NCBI GenBank assembly: GCA_030684395.1
Contig: JAUXTT010000002.1
Location: forward strand, 1-64,000
Reading direction: 5' to 3'
Length of the DNA stretch: 64,000 bases
From: Bacteroidota bacterium
GTDB lineage: Bacteria; Bacteroidota; Bacteroidia; B-17B0; Aurantibacillaceae
The position numbers and the translations under genes are program-made. Shown here one piece after another: positions 55,329 through 63,175 of this stretch. Position 1 is the stretch's first letter. Every line of letters starts with the position of its first letter. The notes under the pieces are model-generated. The model was given only the letters and a program-made list of their open reading frames with translations, was not told the DNA's origin and ran no database searches.

Positions 55329-56879
55329 TTATTTTTCTATAGAAACTAAACTATCCGCATTTGCACCGCTAACGGCATCCCAGTTAACCAGTTTGAAATT
55401 ATAAGGTTTACGGTAGGAGGCGAAATAGGATTTACAAGGTAATGGTTGGAGCGTGTCATTGAACAAGTTGTTGAAAATGATGCGGAAGGTGTTTACGGGT
55501 GTGTGATTAGTAGGGAATTCCATCTTGTATTTTTCAGGGATGTGCATGGCATTTAAAATTCCATATCGCTCAATGAGCATTTCTTTGGAGGGGTATTTGG
55601 CCCAATAAATCTCATCTTCAAAGCGCTCGGAGCCGGCACTTCCATGATCGCCCTGCAGGATAATGATTGGTTCCTGATCAGAGCCGGCAATGAGTTGCTT
55701 TACAATTTCAAGCATTTTTTTATTTATAAATTTTACCTGATCCGTGTATTCCTTTTTTTGCTTGTACCTGTTCTCTACATTAGGATCAACATACACAAAG
55801 TTTCCATTCTCATCAAACACATGCGGTGGATGCGGAGTCAAGCTATGAAAGAAAACAAACTTAGGACCACTTTCTTCCGGAGTTTTAGGTAACATATTTA
55901 AGGAATAATTACATGCATCATACACACCGGCAGAATAAAACTCCAATTGCAAACAATTCAGCACACTCAACTGAATCAGCGTTTCATGAAAATTGTTAAT
56001 CCGCAGTTTATTGTTGATGTATAAATCCGCTTGTGTTTTATCATTCAACTGTTCATAAGCCGATGCAAACTGCACATATTTGTATCCTTTGCTCTTAAAG
56101 TAATTTGCCACTTTGTTCTTCCGGATTTTTGTAAAAGGAAAATCTTCGTTTTGTTTTTCGATAGAAACAGAGTCTTCAAAATAATTGATGTACTCCATAT
56201 TTAAACTGGAAGACAGAGAAAAATACGTATAAGGATAATTACTTCTTGCCTTATCCAACACCTGAAAACCCATATCACTCAATTGCTTTGTAAATGAGCT
56301 ATTATCGTAATTGTAATACTCCTTTAAATTTTCTGTACTGGGATAGGAATCCAGAATAATATAATACACATCGGGGAGGTTTCCTGTAGAGGTATTACTT
56401 TGCTTAGCTGCTGTTACTGATTCATTTCCCCGGTTCATCATCCCTATCATTTTCATAAAGAACTGAAGGTTTAACACCAAACCCATTATCAGGATCACGT
56501 TGATCAGTTTGGCTGGAACACTGTTTATCTTCCAAACCTTACTAATGAGCAACAGAAACGCCAAAGAATAAACAGGAATAAAATAACGATGCCTTAAAGA
56601 AGCAGGTCCAATAAAATTATACAAATGTCCATACAACAAAAACCACCAAATAATGAGGATACAAATGATGGTAACGTTGGTGTTTTTTTTATTCAGGAAA
56701 TTAAATCCGACGTACAACACAAGAGCTGCTACCAGCATAATGCTAATAGGAGTGCTAATATCGCCTTCAAAAATAAAAGCTTCGTTCCTGAAGAAAACAA
56801 ATAAGATCGGGAAAACTGCATAGAGTGAGATGCAGACCACCTGTTTTAAATGGATTTTCAAAAAATCTTGTACCATCAT
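55329..56879 (-). CDS. Membrane sulfatase-fold (alkaline phosphatase superfamily) protein
   Basis: A 516-aa protein with about five N-terminal membrane helices (to about residue 150) and a large extracytoplasmic catalytic domain of the LTA-synthase/sulfatase type. YIILDSYPSTENLKEYY supplies the metal-binding Asp and a nucleophile-region Ser/Thr; HSLTPHPPHVF and IILQGDHGS give the later metal ligands. Such proteins transfer or remove phospho-substituents on surface glycans. Its start overlaps the upstream methyltransferase stop by 4 nt (ATGA), so translation is coupled. Confidence 0.82.
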   Translation of the reverse strand: MMVQDFLKIHLKQVVCISLYAVFPILFVFFRNEAFIFEGDISTPISIMLVAALVLYVGFNFLNKKNTNVTIICILIIWWFLLYGHLYNFIGPASLRHRYFIPVYSLAFLLLISKVWKINSVPAKLINVILIMGLVLNLQFFMKMIGMMNRGNESVTAAKQSNTSTGNLPDVYYIILDSYPSTENLKEYYNYDNSSFTKQLSDMGFQVLDKARSNYPYTYFSLSSSLNMEYINYFEDSVSIEKQNEDFPFTKIRKNKVANYFKSKGYKYVQFASAYEQLNDKTQADLYINNKLRINNFHETLIQLSVLNCLQLEFYSAGVYDACNYSLNMLPKTPEESGPKFVFFHSLTPHPPHVFDENGNFVYVDPNVENRYKQKKEYTDQVKFINKKMLEIVKQLIAGSDQEPIIILQGDHGSAGSERFEDEIYWAKYPSKEMLIERYGILNAMHIPEKYKMEFPTNHTPVNTFRIIFNNLFNDTLQPLPCKSYFASYRKPYNFKLVNWDAVSGANADSLVSIEK

Positions 56880-58234
56880 GCATCAACCTCTTTTAAAGTC
56901 ATGTGATACAAAAAACGTTTTCCTTTCTTAATTTCTACCATTTCGTGTAGATTGAAATAAACTGAAAACGCTTCTTCAAAACTTTGTTTGTTGTAAACCC
57001 ATTTATTATTCGGGTTTTGAATTTTGATGAATTGTTCATCTTCTTCGCTTACAAACTCTATAATCAGCTCCTTTGAGAAAGTGCTAAAAATATCAGCTAT
57101 GTAGTTAAGCGGTATATTCCTTCTTTGAAAAATGTGATGAACAACAGCTAAGGCAATAGTCATATCGGGTTTAATCCTGCTAAAGAAATTGCTTCTTTCT
57201 TTTAAATTAATCCCCAATGAAGGGCTTACCATGGTGATATCTGCATTCAAAGGAATGAAATTGGCAGTCGGCTTTTTCTGTTTTTTGTATAACTTATCAA
57301 CAACAGCGCAATCATTATCTATGGCAATAATATTTTCAGCTTTATCAAAAAAAAGTGTTGCAAAGAGATCGTGATTAGCACCAATGTCCAAAACAGTTTC
57401 ATATTTCCTATTCGCTATCCATTTTTCAATTACGGTTTTCTTGTCGCTGAATTCATTTGCACTGTATGGGACCTGCCCTTCATAAGAAGTCCAGTTACTG
57501 CTTTGATCTTTTGCTGTTAATTCACTTATTCCAAGCTTCAAATGTTTAATGATCGAAAGTGTTTTTTCTTTTGTAATCGTAGCAGTTTTTTTTGGTCCTT
57601 CATTTTTGGCAGTAAACTTCGAATGAGCTATGATGTGCATCAGGCTTAAGGAATTAAACCTTGCTTTGTATGGCAATAGCGCAGCAACTTCTTTTAAAGG
57701 AATTCCTTCCAAATGAATTGCTAATTGTTTGTTCCAGTTTCCTGGAAAATAATTTGACAAGAGTAAAGGAGCTAAAAAGAATTCACAAAATTGTTTGTAT
57801 GCGTTCCAGGGAGTTCCGCTTTCATATATTTCAATTGATAATACGTCTATAAAACAGGGTTTATTTTTATAGAACTGAATATTAAAAGGACTGGCATCTT
57901 TAAGTATAGCCTTGTTATTCAGGCATATCTCCATGATCTCCAAATGCAAGAGTGCTGCAGCTTTCAATTGCTCAAAACCCCATTCGTAAGGGTACGTGAT
58001 CACCTGAATTTTTTCTGTTTCTAAAAAAAGTCCTTCTTCGTTTTGAAGATCCGTAAATGGAATTAGTAGCTTTTGATCAATCAGTACTTTATAAATGCCT
58101 GATTTTTTGAGAGAATGATAATGATCCGAAAAATTAGTATTTACCTTACGAAATACCTTGTTATCCTGATAAAAGACATAACCATCCGGATCTTTGTAGG
58201 AAGAATATTCGCGTTCAATTTTTTTCTGGTTCAT
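56876..58234 (-). CDS. Class I SAM-dependent methyltransferase-like protein
   Basis: A 452-aa cytoplasmic protein. The start at 58234 (MNQKKIEREYSS) is preferred over 58261 as the first nine residues of the longer form would fall within the upstream gene. The N-terminal half has a long conserved region that includes a kinase-like DASPFNIQFYKNKPCFID segment; the C-terminal half holds a Rossmann methyltransferase with VLDIGANHDLFATL, IIAIDNDCAVVDKL and a catalytic-region LAVVHHIFQ. It probably modifies a surface glycan or lipid. It is the middle gene of a three-gene cluster. Confidence 0.82.
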   Translation of the reverse strand: MNQKKIEREYSSYKDPDGYVFYQDNKVFRKVNTNFSDHYHSLKKSGIYKVLIDQKLLIPFTDLQNEEGLFLETEKIQVITYPYEWGFEQLKAAALLHLEIMEICLNNKAILKDASPFNIQFYKNKPCFIDVLSIEIYESGTPWNAYKQFCEFFLAPLLLSNYFPGNWNKQLAIHLEGIPLKEVAALLPYKARFNSLSLMHIIAHSKFTAKNEGPKKTATITKEKTLSIIKHLKLGISELTAKDQSSNWTSYEGQVPYSANEFSDKKTVIEKWIANRKYETVLDIGANHDLFATLFFDKAENIIAIDNDCAVVDKLYKKQKKPTANFIPLNADITMVSPSLGINLKERSNFFSRIKPDMTIALAVVHHIFQRRNIPLNYIADIFSTFSKELIIEFVSEEDEQFIKIQNPNNKWVYNKQSFEEAFSVYFNLHEMVEIKKGKRFLYHMTLKEVDA

Positions 58235-58379
58235 CGTCTTTTTTTGAAACAAATATTCCAATTATCTTTTTCCAATAGATCTTTATTACTGCAATAAAGC
58301 CAACCAAACCTGCTATTAAAGCCTGAAACAAAATACTTCCGGAACCCGGATCGATATATAAAAGTATATGATGGAACAC
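58215..58379 (-). CDS. 54-aa YIDPGSGS membrane microprotein
   Basis: A short gene with a GTG start at 58379 and TGA at 58217-58215, overlapping the methyltransferase start by 20 nt. The protein has LLYIDPGSGSILFQALIAG followed by a single transmembrane helix (LVGFIAVIKIYW), then a Lys-rich cytoplasmic tail. I recall similar YIDPG(T/S)GS microproteins next to methyltransferase and phosphotransferase-like genes in other bacteria, all uncharacterised. An in-frame TAA 21 nt upstream fixes the ORF; a -7 box (TAAATTTG, 58394-58387) lies 7 nt before the GTG, so the message may be leaderless. Confidence 0.72.
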   Translation of the reverse strand: MFHHILLYIDPGSGSILFQALIAGLVGFIAVIKIYWKKIIGIFVSKKDDEPEKN

Positions 58380-58386
58380 GTTTACA

Positions 58387-58394
58387 CAAATTTA
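58387..58394 (-). promoter_or_regulatory. -7 box of the microprotein cluster
   Basis: TAAATTTG on the minus strand, an exact TAnnTTTG match, lies 7 nt upstream of the GTG at 58379. A start site about 5-7 nt further on would make the mRNA leaderless. Confidence 0.45.
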
Positions 58395-58405
58395 AGCAAA
58401 AAATA

Positions 58406-59767
58406 CTACTTCTTTAGCTTAGGATCCAATGCATCGCGTAAACCTTCACCAATGAGGTTATACATGGTAACCGTTAAAAAAATAGCTATTCCGGGAAACA
58501 GTACCAGCCACCATGATGAGGCACTTTGTTTTGCTTCACTCAGAATTTTTCCCCAGGTAACAATTTCCGGAGGCACGCCAACTCCAATAAACGACAAACT
58601 TGATTCAGTTAAAATAGCTCCTGCAATTCCGAAAGCAATGGCTACCAATGCCGGTCCTATCGCATTAGGTAGAGCATGTCTGAAAATAATTTTTCTGTTT
58701 GTTAAACCCAAAGAGCGTGCTGCCTGTATATAATCCAGCTTACTTACTTTTAAAAACTCTGCTCTGGTAAAACGTGCAATACCTGTCCAACTGCTGAAAC
58801 CAATGATCAACACAAGTGTTGTGAACGAAGGACGGGAAATAGCGGCAATGGAAAGTATCACCAAAAACATAGGTAATGAATTAATGATCTCAATGGTACG
58901 TGATACTATGGAATCAACAGGAACATTTACTTCTTTCTTCAAGAAAGAGAGACTACTCATTTTTTTTCCGATGAATACAAACACAAAAAATACAACACTT
59001 AAAATCAATAAGCTCAATAAGAGTTGAAACACCATATTCCCTCCGCCCTCTTCCATTACATCTTTCAAAACAAAACTCCGGGTATAAAACGCATAGTACC
59101 ATGCAAAGAAGATTCCCAGACAGGATAACCAAAACACTCCACGTCTGGTTTTCATACCCGAATCACCAAAATATCCTGCCATAGCTCCCAACACAATCCC
59201 AACAAAAGAAGCTAGCAGCATGCTTAAGATGCCAATAAACAAAGAGTATTTTACGCCGTGTACCAATCCCGCCAGCACATCACCACCATCTTTTGTGGTT
59301 CCCATGCGATGCTTAAATTTAGTTGGCATCACTATCAATTCTTCGTTTGCCTTTTTAAACACCTGTTCACCTCCGGGAGCTACAATGGTATTCATGGCAT
59401 CTGATTTTCCCGGTGAATAAGCACAATACGCCCAAATTACTTTTTCATATTCAACGCGCTTCCAGTCAAAATTATTCAAACTAATTGTCTCTGATTTTTT
59501 TCCTGCAGCATCCGTTAATTCATATATTTCTTTTGATGAAAAAGCAGGATACAATTTATTGCCTTTGTAAATACAATACAATGGTTTTTCGTTAGCAATT
59601 ACAGGTGCCAGCAAAGCAATGAACACCCACACCAGCAATAATATAAGAGACCAGAATGCTGCTTTATTCTTTTTGAATTGTTTCCACGAATATTTACGGA
59701 AGCTGAATGATTCATCTTCTTTTGTTATAGAAAGTGTTTTATGTTTGAATCTTAAGAACTTTAACAT
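58406..59767 (-). CDS. oppC: Oligopeptide ABC importer permease
   Basis: A 453-aa OppC/DppC-type permease. The membrane core has the EAA loop EFLKVSKLDYIQAARSLGLTNRKIIFRHALPNAIGP, and the C-terminus has GLRDALDPKLKK. It is longer than the usual 300 or so residues: about 100 extra residues follow the first helix (VANEKPLYCIYKGNKLYPAF...) and look extracytoplasmic. The start overlaps the oppB stop by one nucleotide (TGATG). Confidence 0.93.
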   Translation of the reverse strand: MLKFLRFKHKTLSITKEDESFSFRKYSWKQFKKNKAAFWSLILLLVWVFIALLAPVIANEKPLYCIYKGNKLYPAFSSKEIYELTDAAGKKSETISLNNFDWKRVEYEKVIWAYCAYSPGKSDAMNTIVAPGGEQVFKKANEELIVMPTKFKHRMGTTKDGGDVLAGLVHGVKYSLFIGILSMLLASFVGIVLGAMAGYFGDSGMKTRRGVFWLSCLGIFFAWYYAFYTRSFVLKDVMEEGGGNMVFQLLLSLLILSVVFFVFVFIGKKMSSLSFLKKEVNVPVDSIVSRTIEIINSLPMFLVILSIAAISRPSFTTLVLIIGFSSWTGIARFTRAEFLKVSKLDYIQAARSLGLTNRKIIFRHALPNAIGPALVAIAFGIAGAILTESSLSFIGVGVPPEIVTWGKILSEAKQSASSWWLVLFPGIAIFLTVTMYNLIGEGLRDALDPKLKK

Positions 59768-61233
59768 CAGCTATAACTTATTCGTGGGTCAACAACTGCA
59801 TACAAAATATCGGAGATCAAAATTCCAACTAAGGTCAAAAAACCGGTAAGGGTTGTTATAGCTATAATCATTGGATAATTTTGAAAAGTAATGGCATTAA
59901 ATACTTCTAGCCCCATTCCGGGAATTGTAAAAATCGTTTCCAGTATCACTGAACCACCAATAGCCATTGGAAAAATACTTGCAAAAACGGTAATGATGGG
60001 GAATAGAGAATTGCGGAAAGCATGCTTCCAGGTTACTTTTTTTTCTGTTAAACCTTTTGCCCTTGCTGTTCTGATATAATCCTGTTCTATAACATCAACC
60101 ATTGCACCGCGCATGATCCTCGCTAAAAAAGCAAATGAACTGTAAGTATAACAGATCAATGGAAGTATTACATAAGGTAATGAAATCTTTACACATTCAA
60201 AAAACGAGGCTCCTTCCGGGTAACCTTCGGCAGGCTTTACTCCAGACGCAGGCAATACAGAGAACATGTTTGGGTTTGCAAGTAATAACATCAATAAAAA
60301 AGCGACGAAAAAACCGGGCAAAGAATACAACATAAAAAGAACCAGTGAAGAAGCCCGGTCGAACAAACCACCTCTTTTTTGCGCAGCACGAACACCAATA
60401 GGGATACTGATCAGGTAAGCCAGGAATACAGACAAACAGGTAAACAACAACGACCAGCCTATTTTAGTTTTGATCACCTCAGAGATTGGCATTTTGGTTT
60501 GATAAGAAATTCCAAAATCGAAACGAAAAATTCCTTTACTGAATTCTCCATCACCAAACAACCAACGGTGATATTGGTTTTTAACTCCATAAAAATCTAT
60601 TGCAGGAATGTAGTTCTTCCACACTGAACTGTTTGCTTTGATACCGGCAAAATGGGTTTCTGTTTGCTTTAACTGTTTTTCAATACTTTTAAAAAAGGGA
60701 TATTTAGCTAATACATCATTCATCTTTTTGAACTTAGATGCAATTACTTCCCCTTCGTAAGCCGCGCTTAGAGCAAGAGACTCAAAACGAAGCTGATTCA
60801 GTTGTTCATCCAATCCGGCAAACTCTTTCAACATGGTTGTATCGGGTTTGAAAGAGGCAAGTGAATCATAAAGCCGGTGACAACTTAAATAATAAGCAGA
60901 GATCTCACTCCAGTTTCCGTACTCAGTGATCAATCTTTCCAAAGCCTGATTTTCTTCCTTTTCATAAACTTTATAAAGTGTATCAGGTCGTGATAGTGAC
61001 GAGACCGCCATATAAAAAACAGGCAAATCAAGTCCCAGTTTTTTTCTCCAGAATAATTTTTGTTCTTTTTGAGCGGAGTTATTGGAAGCTAAATCCCCTG
61101 TTTGAGTAGCCGAGGACACCAGTTTTTCAACAGGATCTCCCGGTGCGTTAATTGCTATTACAAAGCCCAAAAGGGTAATGATAAATAGTGTAGGTATAAA
61201 AAGTAATATGCGCTTACCTATGTATTTGAACAT
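59767..61233 (-). CDS. oppB: Oligopeptide ABC importer permease
   Basis: A 488-aa OppB/DppB-type permease. Helix 1 with FVIAINAPGDPVE at its end and the C-terminal core SYSSFAFLARIMRGAMVDVIEQDYIRTARAKGLTE with the EAA loop are conserved. About 170 additional residues between helices 1 and 2 (roughly 45-225, rich in Lys, Glu and Leu) form a large extracytoplasmic insertion not found in E. coli OppB. Upstream oppA is 7 bp away. Confidence 0.93.
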   Translation of the reverse strand: MFKYIGKRILLFIPTLFIITLLGFVIAINAPGDPVEKLVSSATQTGDLASNNSAQKEQKLFWRKKLGLDLPVFYMAVSSLSRPDTLYKVYEKEENQALERLITEYGNWSEISAYYLSCHRLYDSLASFKPDTTMLKEFAGLDEQLNQLRFESLALSAAYEGEVIASKFKKMNDVLAKYPFFKSIEKQLKQTETHFAGIKANSSVWKNYIPAIDFYGVKNQYHRWLFGDGEFSKGIFRFDFGISYQTKMPISEVIKTKIGWSLLFTCLSVFLAYLISIPIGVRAAQKRGGLFDRASSLVLFMLYSLPGFFVAFLLMLLLANPNMFSVLPASGVKPAEGYPEGASFFECVKISLPYVILPLICYTYSSFAFLARIMRGAMVDVIEQDYIRTARAKGLTEKKVTWKHAFRNSLFPIITVFASIFPMAIGGSVILETIFTIPGMGLEVFNAITFQNYPMIIAITTLTGFLTLVGILISDILYAVVDPRISYS

Positions 61234-61240
61234 TTTTAGT

Positions 61241-63076
61241 TTATGGTGTAGCCGAAATTAATTTTAAATTGTTCAATAACAAACCCGGTTTTTCGTAATA
61301 GTATTCCTGGTTCCCGAAACGCTTGTGTGCAATAACTCTGCGCTTGGACGCAAACATAAAAATGTAAGGTTGTTCATCATAAATAAGCGACTGAATTTTT
61401 TTCATCATTACAATTCTCTTTTCATCGTTTAGCTCTACACGTGAAGAATCGATCAAAGCATCCGATTCAGCATTTCCGAAACCAACAAAATTAGAGCCTT
61501 TGTTGGCCCAGTTACTTGAATGCCAGATCTGTTTCATATCCTCAGGTTGAGAGCTCCCTGCCCATGAAGAAATCATCATATCAAAATCGTGATTATGCAC
61601 TTCCTGCGACCAGGTTGCATATTGTAATGGAACCAATTGAGCGATTACATTGGCTTTTGCCATGCTCTCTGCCATAAGCTTTGCATTCTCTTCCCACACA
61701 GGAGTGGTTGTCATGTATTTGATCTCAAATTTAAAATCTACTCTTTTACCGTCAATCATTTTATCCAATACCTGATCGCTGTTACTGTCCTTCCAGCCCG
61801 CTTCAGCTAATAGTTTTTTAGCTTCCTCTACATTGGTTTCAATTAACTTAAGGTCAGTATTGTATTCTGTTTTTAAAGGGCTTACCGGACCAACAACACG
61901 CTTATTGATATTGTTATTTATAATCTTATTAATGTCGTTATAAGGAACTAACAATGCCATTGCCCTTCTCACACGTTTGTCTGTAAACAAGGCTTTGTGC
62001 TTGGTTCCATCAGGTTTCATGTTCATACCCACATAAGCGAAGTTGTACGAATCCATGAATTTATGGTTGTAATTTTTCGTAAATAATGAGTCCTTTTGCA
62101 ATTCCATTAAAGGCTTGGTATCAAAGGTTGTAGTAACATCAAACACCTGATTCAAAAAATCAAGTTTGGTTGCATTGTGATCTGTATTGATCTTCATGAT
62201 GATCTTCTCAGGAAACGCATTTTCATAAATGCTGTTCTTTCCTGTCGACCAATGGTTCTGTTTTTTCACGAATGTGAGTGACTGATTTCTGTCCCAGGCA
62301 GTTAATTTGTATGGTCCTGCACCTACTATAAAATTCGGATCCTGTTCGTATTTGGCGGAGTTGAATTCATTCGCCCATGTCTTCAGGTCTTCATATTTAT
62401 CTGCAACAAATTTAGGGTCGTTGAACTGAATGAATGTATATTTTGCCAACACATTTCCTTTATCAAAAAAGTTACGCTGCATAATAGGGAAATCGGTAAG
62501 TAAATGTACGTTGGCAATGTACTTTTCCTTCATAATAAATTTCACCTTATTACCTCCAAGATCAATCACTTCCTGAATGATTTCCAGCAAATGCCTGGTA
62601 TCAGGATTGTTTACCAAAGGGCACTTATTAGCTTTAAAAGTAAAGATAACGTCTTCTACTTTCACATTAGCGCCATCATCCCATTTTACATAATCGCGAA
62701 GTGTATACGTGTACTCTACTCCATTGGCAGAAATCTCAGGTGCTGTAGTTGCCAACTGAGGGAATATTGTGAGTTTTTTAAGGTCGTTATTTACCAGATA
62801 GATTTGTGTATACAGGTTGATCTCCTGTTTCATAGCAGAGATACCATTTGTAGGATGAAGTCCATCAGGCTCACCTAAAATGTGGTAGATCACCGTATTC
62901 TCCTTTTTCCAGGAAGGATCCCATTTGGTTGCATCCGGAATACGCTCCACCTTACTTCCTTCATCAATAACAGTTTCATTTTGAACGACCTTCACTTCCT
63001 TTTCATTATCATTTCCACAAGAAACCAATAATAAGGAAGGCAATGTTATAGAGAGCACAGCAATTTTGCGTAACAT
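61241..63076 (-). CDS. oppA: Oligopeptide-binding lipoprotein
   Basis: A 611-aa extracytoplasmic solute-binding protein (SBP_bac_5), captures peptides for the OppBC channel. Start at 63076 (MLRKIAVLSI); the in-frame start at 63118 adds 14 residues before the signal peptide. A lipobox LLVSC lies about residues 16-20. Conserved sections: LGEPDGLHPTNG, VKWDDGANVKVEDVIFTFK, VGAGPYKLTAWDRNQSLTF and ADSDALIDSSR-like. No OppD/OppF ATPase genes follow, so these must lie elsewhere. Confidence 0.94.
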   Translation of the reverse strand: MLRKIAVLSITLPSLLLVSCGNDNEKEVKVVQNETVIDEGSKVERIPDATKWDPSWKKENTVIYHILGEPDGLHPTNGISAMKQEINLYTQIYLVNNDLKKLTIFPQLATTAPEISANGVEYTYTLRDYVKWDDGANVKVEDVIFTFKANKCPLVNNPDTRHLLEIIQEVIDLGGNKVKFIMKEKYIANVHLLTDFPIMQRNFFDKGNVLAKYTFIQFNDPKFVADKYEDLKTWANEFNSAKYEQDPNFIVGAGPYKLTAWDRNQSLTFVKKQNHWSTGKNSIYENAFPEKIIMKINTDHNATKLDFLNQVFDVTTTFDTKPLMELQKDSLFTKNYNHKFMDSYNFAYVGMNMKPDGTKHKALFTDKRVRRAMALLVPYNDINKIINNNINKRVVGPVSPLKTEYNTDLKLIETNVEEAKKLLAEAGWKDSNSDQVLDKMIDGKRVDFKFEIKYMTTTPVWEENAKLMAESMAKANVIAQLVPLQYATWSQEVHNHDFDMMISSWAGSSQPEDMKQIWHSSNWANKGSNFVGFGNAESDALIDSSRVELNDEKRIVMMKKIQSLIYDEQPYIFMFASKRRVIAHKRFGNQEYYYEKPGLLLNNLKLISATP

Positions 63077-63175
63077 TTCCGATTTTTTTTGGTGGAATAC
63101 AAAGGTAACATTGTACACGAAAAAGTATACGATTAATAAAAAGATGAAAAATTAAAATTATTTTTCGTGTAAAAA

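What the first reader, a model, noticed from the sequence alone, without database searches (positions are those of the whole stretch)
55329..58394. Three-gene surface cluster: YIDPGSGS microprotein, methyltransferase and membrane sulfatase-fold enzyme
A 54-aa gene with GTG start was found between oppC and the methyltransferase gene. It overlaps the methyltransferase start, which in turn overlaps the sulfatase-fold gene (ATGA), so all three are translationally coupled. I recall YIDPG(T/S)GS microproteins beside similar enzymes in distant bacteria, uncharacterised. A microprotein that anchors or activates a surface-glycan modifying pair would be a new system.
Basis: partly seen in the sequence, partly recalled or inferred. 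Interest (0 to 1): 0.6.

Follow-up and report, generated by a model that had tools for sequence, protein, structure and literature searches.

The report
Microprotein partner of a kinase-methyltransferase
A tiny, previously unnamed membrane protein travels across many bacterial phyla with an enzyme that looks built to put a methylated phosphate on a surface glycan, and often with a second, outward-facing enzyme of the phosphate-transferring type, which suggests a widespread and undescribed cell-envelope modification system.

Summary
The 54-aa ORF at 58379-58215(-) is real (dN 0.17/0.27, dS 1.48/1.41 against two relatives). Its family matches no Pfam or NCBIfam model and occurs in about 16 phylum-level groups. 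It is a near-obligate companion of the next protein, which is not a plain methyltransferase: a kinase-like domain precedes a WbdD-like phosphate methyltransferase (D113/N118/D130 and H366/H367 in 75 of 75). Of 59 genomes with this enzyme in three phylum samples, 58 have the microprotein; the exception lies beside Wzm/Wzt, the setting of WbdD-type chain terminators. The third gene is an AlkP-fold membrane enzyme with Thr where sulfatases have Cys/Ser, frequent but not obligatory. The microprotein is predicted single-span, N-out/C-in, with an outer motif Y-x-D-P-G-x-G-S-xxx-Q. In three Bacteroidota genomes the enzyme is absent and a phosphonate-synthesis cassette with a TagB-like transferase fills the same site, while microprotein and AlkP gene stay. 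Best reading: a phospho-capping module for an envelope glycan, in which the microprotein links the cytoplasmic capping enzyme to the membrane and outer side. Substrate and the microprotein's mechanism are inferred.

The parts
58215..58379 (-). Microprotein, 54 aa, GTG start; predicted N-out/C-in single-span membrane protein
   Evidence: ORF; conserved family, dN well below dS; no Pfam or NCBIfam family
58323..58358 (-). Outer motif YIDPGSGSILFQ (residues 8-19)
   Evidence: In 37 profile-found members, D 37 of 37, Q 37 of 37, Y 36 of 37, P 35 of 37; pattern hits
58215..58234 (-). Overlap of the microprotein 3' end with the kinase-methyltransferase ATG start (47 nt if the TTG at 58261 is used)
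   Evidence: Sequence
56876..58261 (-). Kinase-like + SAM methyltransferase protein (452 aa from the ATG at 58234; 461 aa from TTG)
   Evidence: AlphaFold2 model pLDDT 93.9; WbdD is the best PDB sequence match of the family profile
57521..58234 (-). N-terminal kinase-like domain (residues 1-238)
   Evidence: Catalytic-loop motif L-K-D-x4-N and the I-D of the DFG position; D113, N118, D130 in 75 of 75; weak matches to WbdD, RIO3 and an APH-type kinase all at this loop
57881..57904 (-). Kinase catalytic-loop motif LKDASPFN (residues 111-118)
56879..57505 (-). C-terminal class I SAM methyltransferase domain (residues 244-452)
   Evidence: Fold matches over about 244-452, best Z 17.7; D283-x-G-x-N SAM motif
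57134..57139 (-). H366-H367, aligned with the phosphate-binding H132/H133 of WbdD
   Evidence: Alignment; 75 of 75; role in WbdD from PMC3482155 passages
55329..56879 (-). Membrane AlkP-superfamily protein, 516 aa, EptC/EptA/LtaS-like by fold, predicted phosphotransferase
   Evidence: Model pLDDT 88.2 with N-terminal helices then an AlkP domain; Foldseek best match EptC periplasmic domain; only A3-profile match (E up to 1e-3) in the 4.87 Mb genome
56226..56228 (-). T218, presumed Thr nucleophile of the AlkP domain (by sequence position; no superposition was inspected)
   Evidence: T in 42 of 43, S in 1; no [CS]x[PA]xR signature in the aligned stretch 200-240 in 43 of 43
55644..55649 (-). D411-H412, predicted metal ligands of the AlkP domain
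   Evidence: D 43 of 43, H 39 of 43

Best explanation
The three genes are a conserved envelope phospho-capping module. Step 1 (inferred from homology and invariant residues): the second gene is a cytoplasmic kinase plus phosphate methyltransferase that works like WbdD. It phosphorylates a hydroxyl of a lipid-linked glycan or glycolipid and methylates that phosphate. Its domain order is the reverse of WbdD's. Step 2 (topology inferred from sequence): the microprotein is its near-obligate membrane partner. It is a single-span protein whose basic C-tail faces the cytoplasm, where it can hold the soluble capping enzyme at the membrane, and whose conserved Y-x-D-P-G-x-G-S-xxx-Q motif sits at the outer face. 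Step 3 (inferred): where the third gene is present, this EptC/LtaS-like phosphotransferase handles the phospho-modified product on the outside, with the outer motif of the microprotein as its docking or gating element. The shared target is a phosphate- or phosphonate-bearing envelope glycan, not specifically LPS.
For: Co-occurrence: in 247 Bacteroidota plus 149 Acidobacteriota genomes both are present in 34, enzyme only 1, microprotein only 1 (weak, E 4.4e-4), neither 360 (Fisher p about 7e-47, only indicative because genomes are related). In Chloroflexota 24 of 24 enzymes have it beside them. Dependence survives separation: in 3 of 27 Acidobacteriota genomes the two genes are apart yet both kept. 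WbdD-like chemistry: the four best PDB matches of the family profile are all WbdD (E 1.7e-5 to 3.1e-5), WbdD is Foldseek rank 1, the HH pair and the kinase D/N/D are 75 of 75, and the one enzyme without microprotein lies directly after an ABC-2 permease and an ATPase with Wzt_C. Phosphotransferase: EptC is the best fold match, with LtaP/LtaS, EptA and MCR-1 in the first 50; presumed nucleophile Thr in 42 of 43, no sulfatase signature there in 43 of 43. Swap: G303-G305 lack the enzyme and hold a PEP mutase/CTP transferase, TPP decarboxylase, Fe-ADH and TagB-like cassette between the same flanking genes that surround the enzyme in G091 and G171, keeping microprotein and AlkP. Topology: 44 of 116 have a hydrophobic leader with small -3/-1 residues just before the motif, a TM-like segment follows in 114 of 116, net positive tail in 105 of 116.
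Against: No activity, binding or substrate was measured. The kinase fold rests on motif and predicted secondary structure; its profile found one weak PDB match (RIO3, E 0.71), Pfam RIO1 matched 2 of 50 members at best E 0.091, the APH comparison was not significant, and the structural second look covered only the methyltransferase half and did not list WbdD among its 50 rows. For the third gene, sequence points the other way from fold: the A3 profile's best PDB matches are sulfatases (6s21 E 8.3e-7, 6bia 4.1e-4 and others) and no EptA, MCR or LtaS chain is listed; true sulfatases also stand from rank 3 in Foldseek. The AlkP partner is not within 2.6 kb of 15 of 88 judgeable pattern loci (two of these, L074 and L119, have one at about 4.6 kb), and is missing from the fetched surroundings in 14 of 27 Acidobacteriota genomes and 8 of 24 Chloroflexota loci. 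Four of 22 genomes with the microprotein have no kinase-methyltransferase (7 of the 22 were picked because their locus lacked it or was cut). The window locus sits beside opp genes, not in a glycan cluster.
Confidence: 0.45

Rival explanations
1. The microprotein is a covalent carrier like DltX: a group is loaded on its nearly invariant outer Tyr (or on the invariant Asp) and passed to the AlkP-type enzyme or to the final acceptor.
For: Predicted single-span microprotein with an outer Tyr (36 of 37) and Asp (37 of 37), directly after the leader in leader-bearing members; DltX carries D-Ala on an invariant outer Tyr between two enzymes (PMC12148441 passages).
Against: No MBOAT or SGNH gene seen among the window neighbours that were read; the AlkP enzyme has its own presumed Thr nucleophile; the AlkP partner is often missing; one member has His at the Tyr position. 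The motif is N-terminal, unlike DltX.
Confidence: 0.15
2. The microprotein is the acceptor: the outer motif is a modification site that carries the phospho-modified glycan, so it is an anchor rather than a subunit.
For: Motif at the predicted outer face with Tyr, Ser and Thr; kept with glycan-phosphate type enzymes of two unrelated kinds.
Against: The Ser/Thr positions are not invariant (Ser or Thr in 31 of 37 at position 6; Ser in 30 of 37 at position 8); the perfectly kept residues are Asp and Gln, which suggests structure or ligand binding.
Confidence: 0.1
3. The microprotein is a folding, insertion or stability factor for the membrane AlkP enzyme, and the link with the kinase-methyltransferase is indirect.
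For: Microprotein stays near an AlkP gene where the kinase-methyltransferase is elsewhere or absent (L206, L208, L153-L155); a YidC/Oxa1-type gene follows it in four Bacteroidota loci.
Against: Microprotein and kinase-methyltransferase occur together without a detected AlkP neighbour in 14 of 27 Acidobacteriota genomes.
Confidence: 0.15
4. A conserved small membrane protein unrelated in function, kept next to the enzymes by chance of gene order.
For: Gene order around the site is shared in Chitinophagaceae-type loci (M42 peptidase upstream).
Against: Association holds across about 16 phylum-level groups, in both orders, and genome-wide when the genes are apart.
Confidence: 0.03

Closest known systems
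WbdD (E. coli O9a / K. pneumoniae O3 kinase-methyltransferase chain terminator)
   Same: Bifunctional kinase + SAM methyltransferase; best sequence match in the PDB; same HH pair that binds phosphate; kinase D, N and D motif; a divergent relative lies after Wzm/Wzt.
   Different: Domain order reversed; no coiled coil or C-terminal membrane region in 452 aa; not next to an ABC exporter of that type in the window; has a microprotein partner.
K. pneumoniae O7 ORF6 methyltransferase-kinase terminator
   Same: Methyl-phosphate cap made by a methyltransferase and a kinase domain that was not recognisable by sequence (PMC11231755 passages).
   Different: Methyltransferase first; fused to coiled coil and glycosyltransferases; no microprotein mentioned in the passages seen.
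EptA/EptC/MCR phosphoethanolamine transferases and LtaS/LtaP
   Same: Membrane helices then outer AlkP domain; best fold matches; Thr at the presumed nucleophile position.
   Different: About 9-15% identity in the Foldseek rows; not found by sequence profile, which picks sulfatases; donor and acceptor unknown; linked to a cytoplasmic kinase-methyltransferase.
DltX
   Same: Small single-span membrane protein with an invariant outer Tyr, partner of envelope-modifying enzymes.
   Different: DltX motif is C-terminal FXYXXF with MBOAT and SGNH partners; here an N-terminal YxDPGxGS motif with kinase-methyltransferase and AlkP.

Membership tests
WbdD-type kinase-methyltransferase terminators | SAM methyltransferase domain related to WbdD | tested here: met
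   Four WbdD chains are the best PDB matches of profile A2, E 1.7e-5 to 3.1e-5; WbdD is Foldseek rank 1, near-tied with other methyltransferases
WbdD-type kinase-methyltransferase terminators | Phosphate-binding His pair (H132/H133 in WbdD) | tested here: met
   H366/H367 in 75 of 75; aligned with the WbdD pair
WbdD-type kinase-methyltransferase terminators | Kinase catalytic Asp, Asn and DFG Asp | tested here: met
   D113, N118, D130 in 75 of 75; motif only
WbdD-type kinase-methyltransferase terminators | Kinase fold of the extra domain | tested here: inconclusive
   Weak matches only; the structural second look covered the methyltransferase half only
WbdD-type kinase-methyltransferase terminators | Methyltransferase first, kinase second, then coiled coil | tested here: not met
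   Kinase-like part is N-terminal; the model ends with the methyltransferase domain
WbdD-type kinase-methyltransferase terminators | Gene beside Wzm/Wzt | tested here: not met
   Window locus lies between oppC and a Sir2 gene; met for the divergent G278 relative
EptA/LtaS-type AlkP phosphotransferases | N-terminal membrane helices followed by an AlkP domain | tested here: met
   Helices 2-31, 38-62, 69-81 with 83-90, 97-117, 123-150, then alpha/beta domain; EptC best match
EptA/LtaS-type AlkP phosphotransferases | Thr nucleophile and metal ligands | tested here: met
   By sequence position: T218 42 of 43, D177 42 of 43, H350 43 of 43, D411 43 of 43, H412 39 of 43; not superposed on a solved structure
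EptA/LtaS-type AlkP phosphotransferases | Sequence-level relation to EptA/MCR/LtaS | tested here: inconclusive
   The profile's PDB matches are sulfatases; none of EptA, MCR or LtaS listed at E up to 10
EptA/LtaS-type AlkP phosphotransferases | Transfer of a phosphorylated head group | not testable with these tools
   Needs an assay
Formylglycine sulfatases | [CS]x[PA]xR signature with Cys or Ser turned into formylglycine | tested here: not met
   0 of 43 have the signature in the stretch aligned with window residues 200-240; 5 of 43 have it somewhere else
DltX microproteins | C-terminal FXYXXF motif | tested here: not met
   Motif absent from the window microprotein; definition
Any named Pfam or NCBIfam family (microprotein) | Match of family members to a curated model | tested here: not met
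   80 members scanned; in the lists shown, at most 3 match any one Pfam model and 2 any one NCBIfam model, weak and unrelated to each other

The most novel reading that the evidence does not exclude
A DltX-like microprotein system for phosphoryl chemistry: an ancient, phylum-spanning microprotein couples a cytoplasmic cap-making enzyme (methyl-phosphate, or phosphonate where the enzyme is swapped) to an outer-face transferase, with its outer Tyr/Asp motif taking part directly in moving or recognising the phospho-cap. This would be a general envelope phospho-capping pathway not restricted to O-antigens.
Probability: 0.25. Interest if true: 0.88.

Novelty: new variant of a known kind. Interest (0 to 1): 0.72.

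Why it matters
A microprotein family with no Pfam or NCBIfam entry is kept with one enzyme in three phylum samples and found with it in about 16 phylum-level groups, including a Parcubacteria assembly of only 0.6 Mb and groups generally held to lack an outer membrane (recalled). That makes it a strong candidate for an unrecognised envelope pathway. It could extend methyl-phosphate capping, known from a few O-antigens, to a general glycan modification, and gives a testable case of a microprotein that links a cytoplasmic enzyme to an outer-face enzyme. Cultured hosts exist (Pedobacter cryoconitis, Sediminibacterium, Rufibacter).

Tried and rejected
Plain sulfatase reading set aside: the formylglycine signature is absent from the aligned stretch in 43 of 43 and that position is Thr in 42 of 43, although sequence profiles match sulfatases best. 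Plain methyltransferase reading rejected: the N-terminal half carries an invariant kinase-type motif. Obligatory three-gene reading rejected: with the A3 profile at 1e-15 only 7 of 149 Acidobacteriota genomes have the AlkP (6 of the 27 with microprotein and enzyme, 1 of the 122 others; Fisher p 1.3e-4). A laxer local search (E below 1e-4) found one in the fetched surroundings in 13 of 27.

Kinase fold: profile comparison with three APH-type proteins was not significant (probability 0.6%, E 0.1), although the best local alignment fell on the catalytic loop. Only 3 of the 11 loci I put in gave a usable sequence by my motif filter. pdb_via rows covered residues 244-452 only and did not list WbdD. 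No matches in PADLOC or PHROGs at E 0.01. Literature in the held library: searches for YIDPGTGS, YIDPG, DPGTGS and DPGSGS gave no paper on this family (the one YIDPG paper, PMC12150317, seen as one passage, holds an unrelated protein sequence; the DPGTGS and DPGSGS papers were seen as listings only), and two topic searches gave none. The small-protein search and the phosphonate/TagB search were seen as listings only.

Circularity: rows of A4 from L007-L123 were found with a pattern that fixes Y-I-D-P-G-x-G and Q, so their invariance is by construction. I use 37 members found by profile or by similarity instead; the profile itself was built mostly from the pattern rows, so some pull to the motif remains. 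One further profile hit (L205, the G382 fusion) was dropped from that count. The enzyme and AlkP profiles used in the Python counts were built from the same loci. L070 was dropped from the 117 pattern loci because its match encodes no such ORF. Some loci are duplicates of one genome (for example L002 and L062, L004 and L027).

Full report
THE OBSERVATION. The microprotein (58379-58215, 54 aa, GTG) overlaps the start of the second gene by 20 nt (ATG 58234) or 47 nt (TTG 58261), and the second gene overlaps the third by ATGA. The degenerate YIDPG pattern occurs once in the window and in 0 of 100 shuffles. Between the window copy and two relatives the codons change mainly at third positions (10/3/22 and 13/6/24), with dN 0.17 and 0.27 and dS 1.48 and 1.41, so it is a selected protein-coding gene.

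DISTRIBUTION. In 116 of them the match lies in an ORF encoding 29-67 residues from the motif on, shortest where the stretch is cut; L070 does not. By record titles these come from about 16 phylum-level groups: Bacteroidota, Chloroflexota, Omnitrophota, Desulfobacterota, Patescibacteria, Pseudomonadota, Verrucomicrobiota/Kiritimatiellae, Actinomycetota, Gastranaerophilales, Armatimonadota, Acidobacteriota with Aminicenantes, Bacillota, Krumholzibacteriota, Zixibacteria, Auribacterota and Planctomycetota (the grouping of titles is mine). Most records are MAGs; isolates include Pedobacter cryoconitis, Sediminibacterium magnilacihabitans, Rufibacter hautae, Flavisolibacter longurius and Terrimonas pollutisoli. 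No Pfam or NCBIfam model describes it.

ASSOCIATION. In the 116 loci the second gene's family is present in 104: 92 directly downstream, 8 directly upstream and 4 nearby. It is absent in 6 that could be judged (L019, L058, L074, L114, L118, L119), and 6 loci were cut. The cut L081 was later seen to lack it too, while the genomes of L058, L114 and L118 have it elsewhere. Because that sample was chosen by motif, I tested samples not chosen by it. In 247 Bacteroidota genomes the enzyme (E below 1e-50; the next match is 2.8e-14 and covers the methyltransferase half only) is in 8 and the microprotein in 7 of those same 8, adjacent in all 7. In 149 Acidobacteriota genomes the enzyme is in 27 and the microprotein in all 27, plus one weak hit, G382; the pair is adjacent in 24 and apart in 3. 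Together: both 34, enzyme only 1, microprotein only 1, neither 360; Fisher p about 7e-47 (related genomes are not independent, so the p value is only indicative). In 201 Chloroflexota genomes 24 have the enzyme, and 24 of 24 have the microprotein beside it (there the microprotein was sought only beside the enzyme). In one of these, L258, both genes are broken into pieces, as if they decay together or were misassembled. Over the three phyla 58 of 59 genomes with the enzyme have the microprotein.

THE SECOND GENE. The AlphaFold2 model is confident (pLDDT 93.9). Residues 244-452 are a class I SAM methyltransferase (best rows NodS, PH0226 and N-methyltransferases, Z about 17; WbdD is not among the 50 rows shown there). 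The family profile's four best PDB matches are all WbdD (E 1.7e-5 to 3.1e-5), and WbdD is rank 1 in Foldseek, near-tied with other methyltransferases. The profile match puts our H366-H367 on the WbdD pair H132-H133, which clusters at the methyl donor as a phosphate site and is needed for its methyltransferase activity (PMC3482155, passages); they are 75 of 75 in our family. The N-terminal half has L-K-D-x4-N and a downstream I-D; D113, N118 and D130 are 75 of 75, with kinase-like spacing (recalled), and I read the predicted secondary structure (strands, helices, two strands, helix, catalytic loop, two strands, helices) as kinase-like. Sequence matches to kinases are weak but all fall on that loop (WbdD, APH-type, RIO3). 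I take this as a kinase-like domain; activity is inferred.

A CLUE FROM THE EXCEPTION. The single Bacteroidota enzyme without microprotein (G278, E 2.8e-58; of 19 conserved positions checked it differs from the consensus at I129V, G285A and D399E) lies directly after an ABC-2 permease and an ATPase with a Wzt_C domain, followed by a hexapeptide transferase and a glycosyltransferase. That is the setting of WbdD-type terminators, which cap O-antigen with methyl phosphate (PMC3482155 and PMC11231755, passages).

THE THIRD GENE. The model (pLDDT 88.2) has N-terminal membrane helices and an AlkP domain. The best fold match is the EptC periplasmic domain, with EptA, MCR-1, LtaP/LtaS and, from rank 3 on, true sulfatases among the first 50. 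By sequence the profile's PDB matches are sulfatases (best E 8.3e-7) and none is EptA, MCR or LtaS; 33 of 43 members match Pfam Sulfatase, the window member does not. Against a sulfatase: the aligned stretch has SNYxxT, Thr in 42 of 43, and the [CS]x[PA]xR signature is absent there in 43 of 43. I therefore prefer phosphotransfer, but a hydrolase is not excluded. The window genome has exactly one member, the one in this operon. The partner lies within 2.6 kb of 73 of 116 pattern loci (15 without, 28 cut), in 10 of 11 extended Bacteroidota loci, 13 of 27 Acidobacteriota genomes and 16 of 24 Chloroflexota loci. It is frequent but not obligatory.

THE SWAP. Four of 22 genomes with the microprotein have no kinase-methyltransferase (7 of the 22 had been picked because their locus lacked it or was cut). 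In three (G303, G304, G305, all Bacteroidota by title) the site instead holds a PEP mutase/cytidylyltransferase fusion, a TPP decarboxylase, an iron alcohol dehydrogenase and a TagB-like (Glyphos_transf) protein, with the microprotein and one or two AlkP genes kept. The flanks are the same as around the enzyme in G091 and G171: an M42-type peptidase on one side and Lon-like and PorV-like genes on the other match in all five (the gene names are mine). In the fourth (G309) a TagB-like ORF overlaps the microprotein ORF. PEP mutase, decarboxylase and alcohol dehydrogenase are the known start of hydroxyethylphosphonate synthesis (recalled). Both arrangements would put a phosphorus group on a glycan, which is why I read the module as acting on phospho-capped envelope glycans.

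THE MICROPROTEIN. In 37 members found by profile or similarity rather than by pattern, the motif is Y(36)-x-D(37)-P(35)-G(30)-x-G(34)-S(30)-xxx-Q(37). Across the 116, a membrane-length hydrophobic segment follows the motif in 114, and the next stretch is net positive in 105. In 51 a hydrophobic leader precedes it (44 with small residues at -3/-1, such as AHA|YIDPG), 62 have only a short N-terminus and 3 fit neither (simple rules, not a trained predictor). Hence motif outside, tail inside, as a prediction. In four Bacteroidota loci it is followed by a YidC/Oxa1-type gene (L044, L080, L113, L118; Pfam-checked for L118). YidC inserts small N-out proteins (recalled), which fits the topology.

HOW IT MOST LIKELY WORKS. 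Shown: gene reality, conservation, near-obligate co-occurrence, conserved catalytic-type residues. Inferred: phosphorylation then methylation of a lipid-linked glycan by the second gene; membrane recruitment by the microprotein's basic tail; docking of the outer AlkP enzyme at the outer motif. Rival roles (covalent carrier like DltX, described in PMC12148441 passages; acceptor; insertion factor) are not excluded.

NOVELTY. The enzymes are variants of known kinds with a new combination and domain order; the microprotein family appears undescribed in what I searched. I file the system as a new variant of a known kind and do not file the enzyme as a WbdD, because domain order and coiled coil were tested and not met.

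Noticed in passing
L153 8387-15774, L154 3926-12921, L155 6676-15686 (G303, G304, G305): Kinase-methyltransferase missing; a PEP mutase/CTP transferase + decarboxylase + Fe-ADH + TagB-like cassette sits between the microprotein and one or two AlkP genes at a site with conserved flanks.
   Followed up: partly
L131 1760-5364 (G278): Divergent kinase-methyltransferase without microprotein or AlkP directly after an ABC-2 permease and a Wzt_C ATPase in a glycan cluster.
   Followed up: yes
L044 5641-6408, L080 4582-6222, L113 5950-7611, L118 3459-4250: YidC/Oxa1-type insertase gene directly after the microprotein in four Bacteroidota loci, possibly a dedicated insertase.
   Followed up: no
L214 2118-4307 (G382): 730-aa ORF begins with a leader ending AHA then YIGPGAGF and a membrane segment, fused to a PF01663 phosphodiesterase domain; weak match to the microprotein profile (E 1e-4 to 4e-4 by call). 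Could be a distant fused relative.
   Followed up: partly
L258 2119-3370 (G567): Microprotein and kinase-methyltransferase both broken into pieces in the same locus, suggesting joint decay or assembly errors.
   Followed up: no
L115, L103: A complete module on a contig labelled Altiarchaeales archaeon, and a microprotein with the enzyme on a Pelagibacteraceae MAG; bin contamination is possible, not checked.
   Followed up: no
window 58406-63118: oppC, an oppB-like and an oppA-like gene run in the same direction just upstream (names of the last two from sequence by eye); the microprotein starts 26 nt after oppC, so the module may be read with the peptide transporter operon.
   Followed up: no
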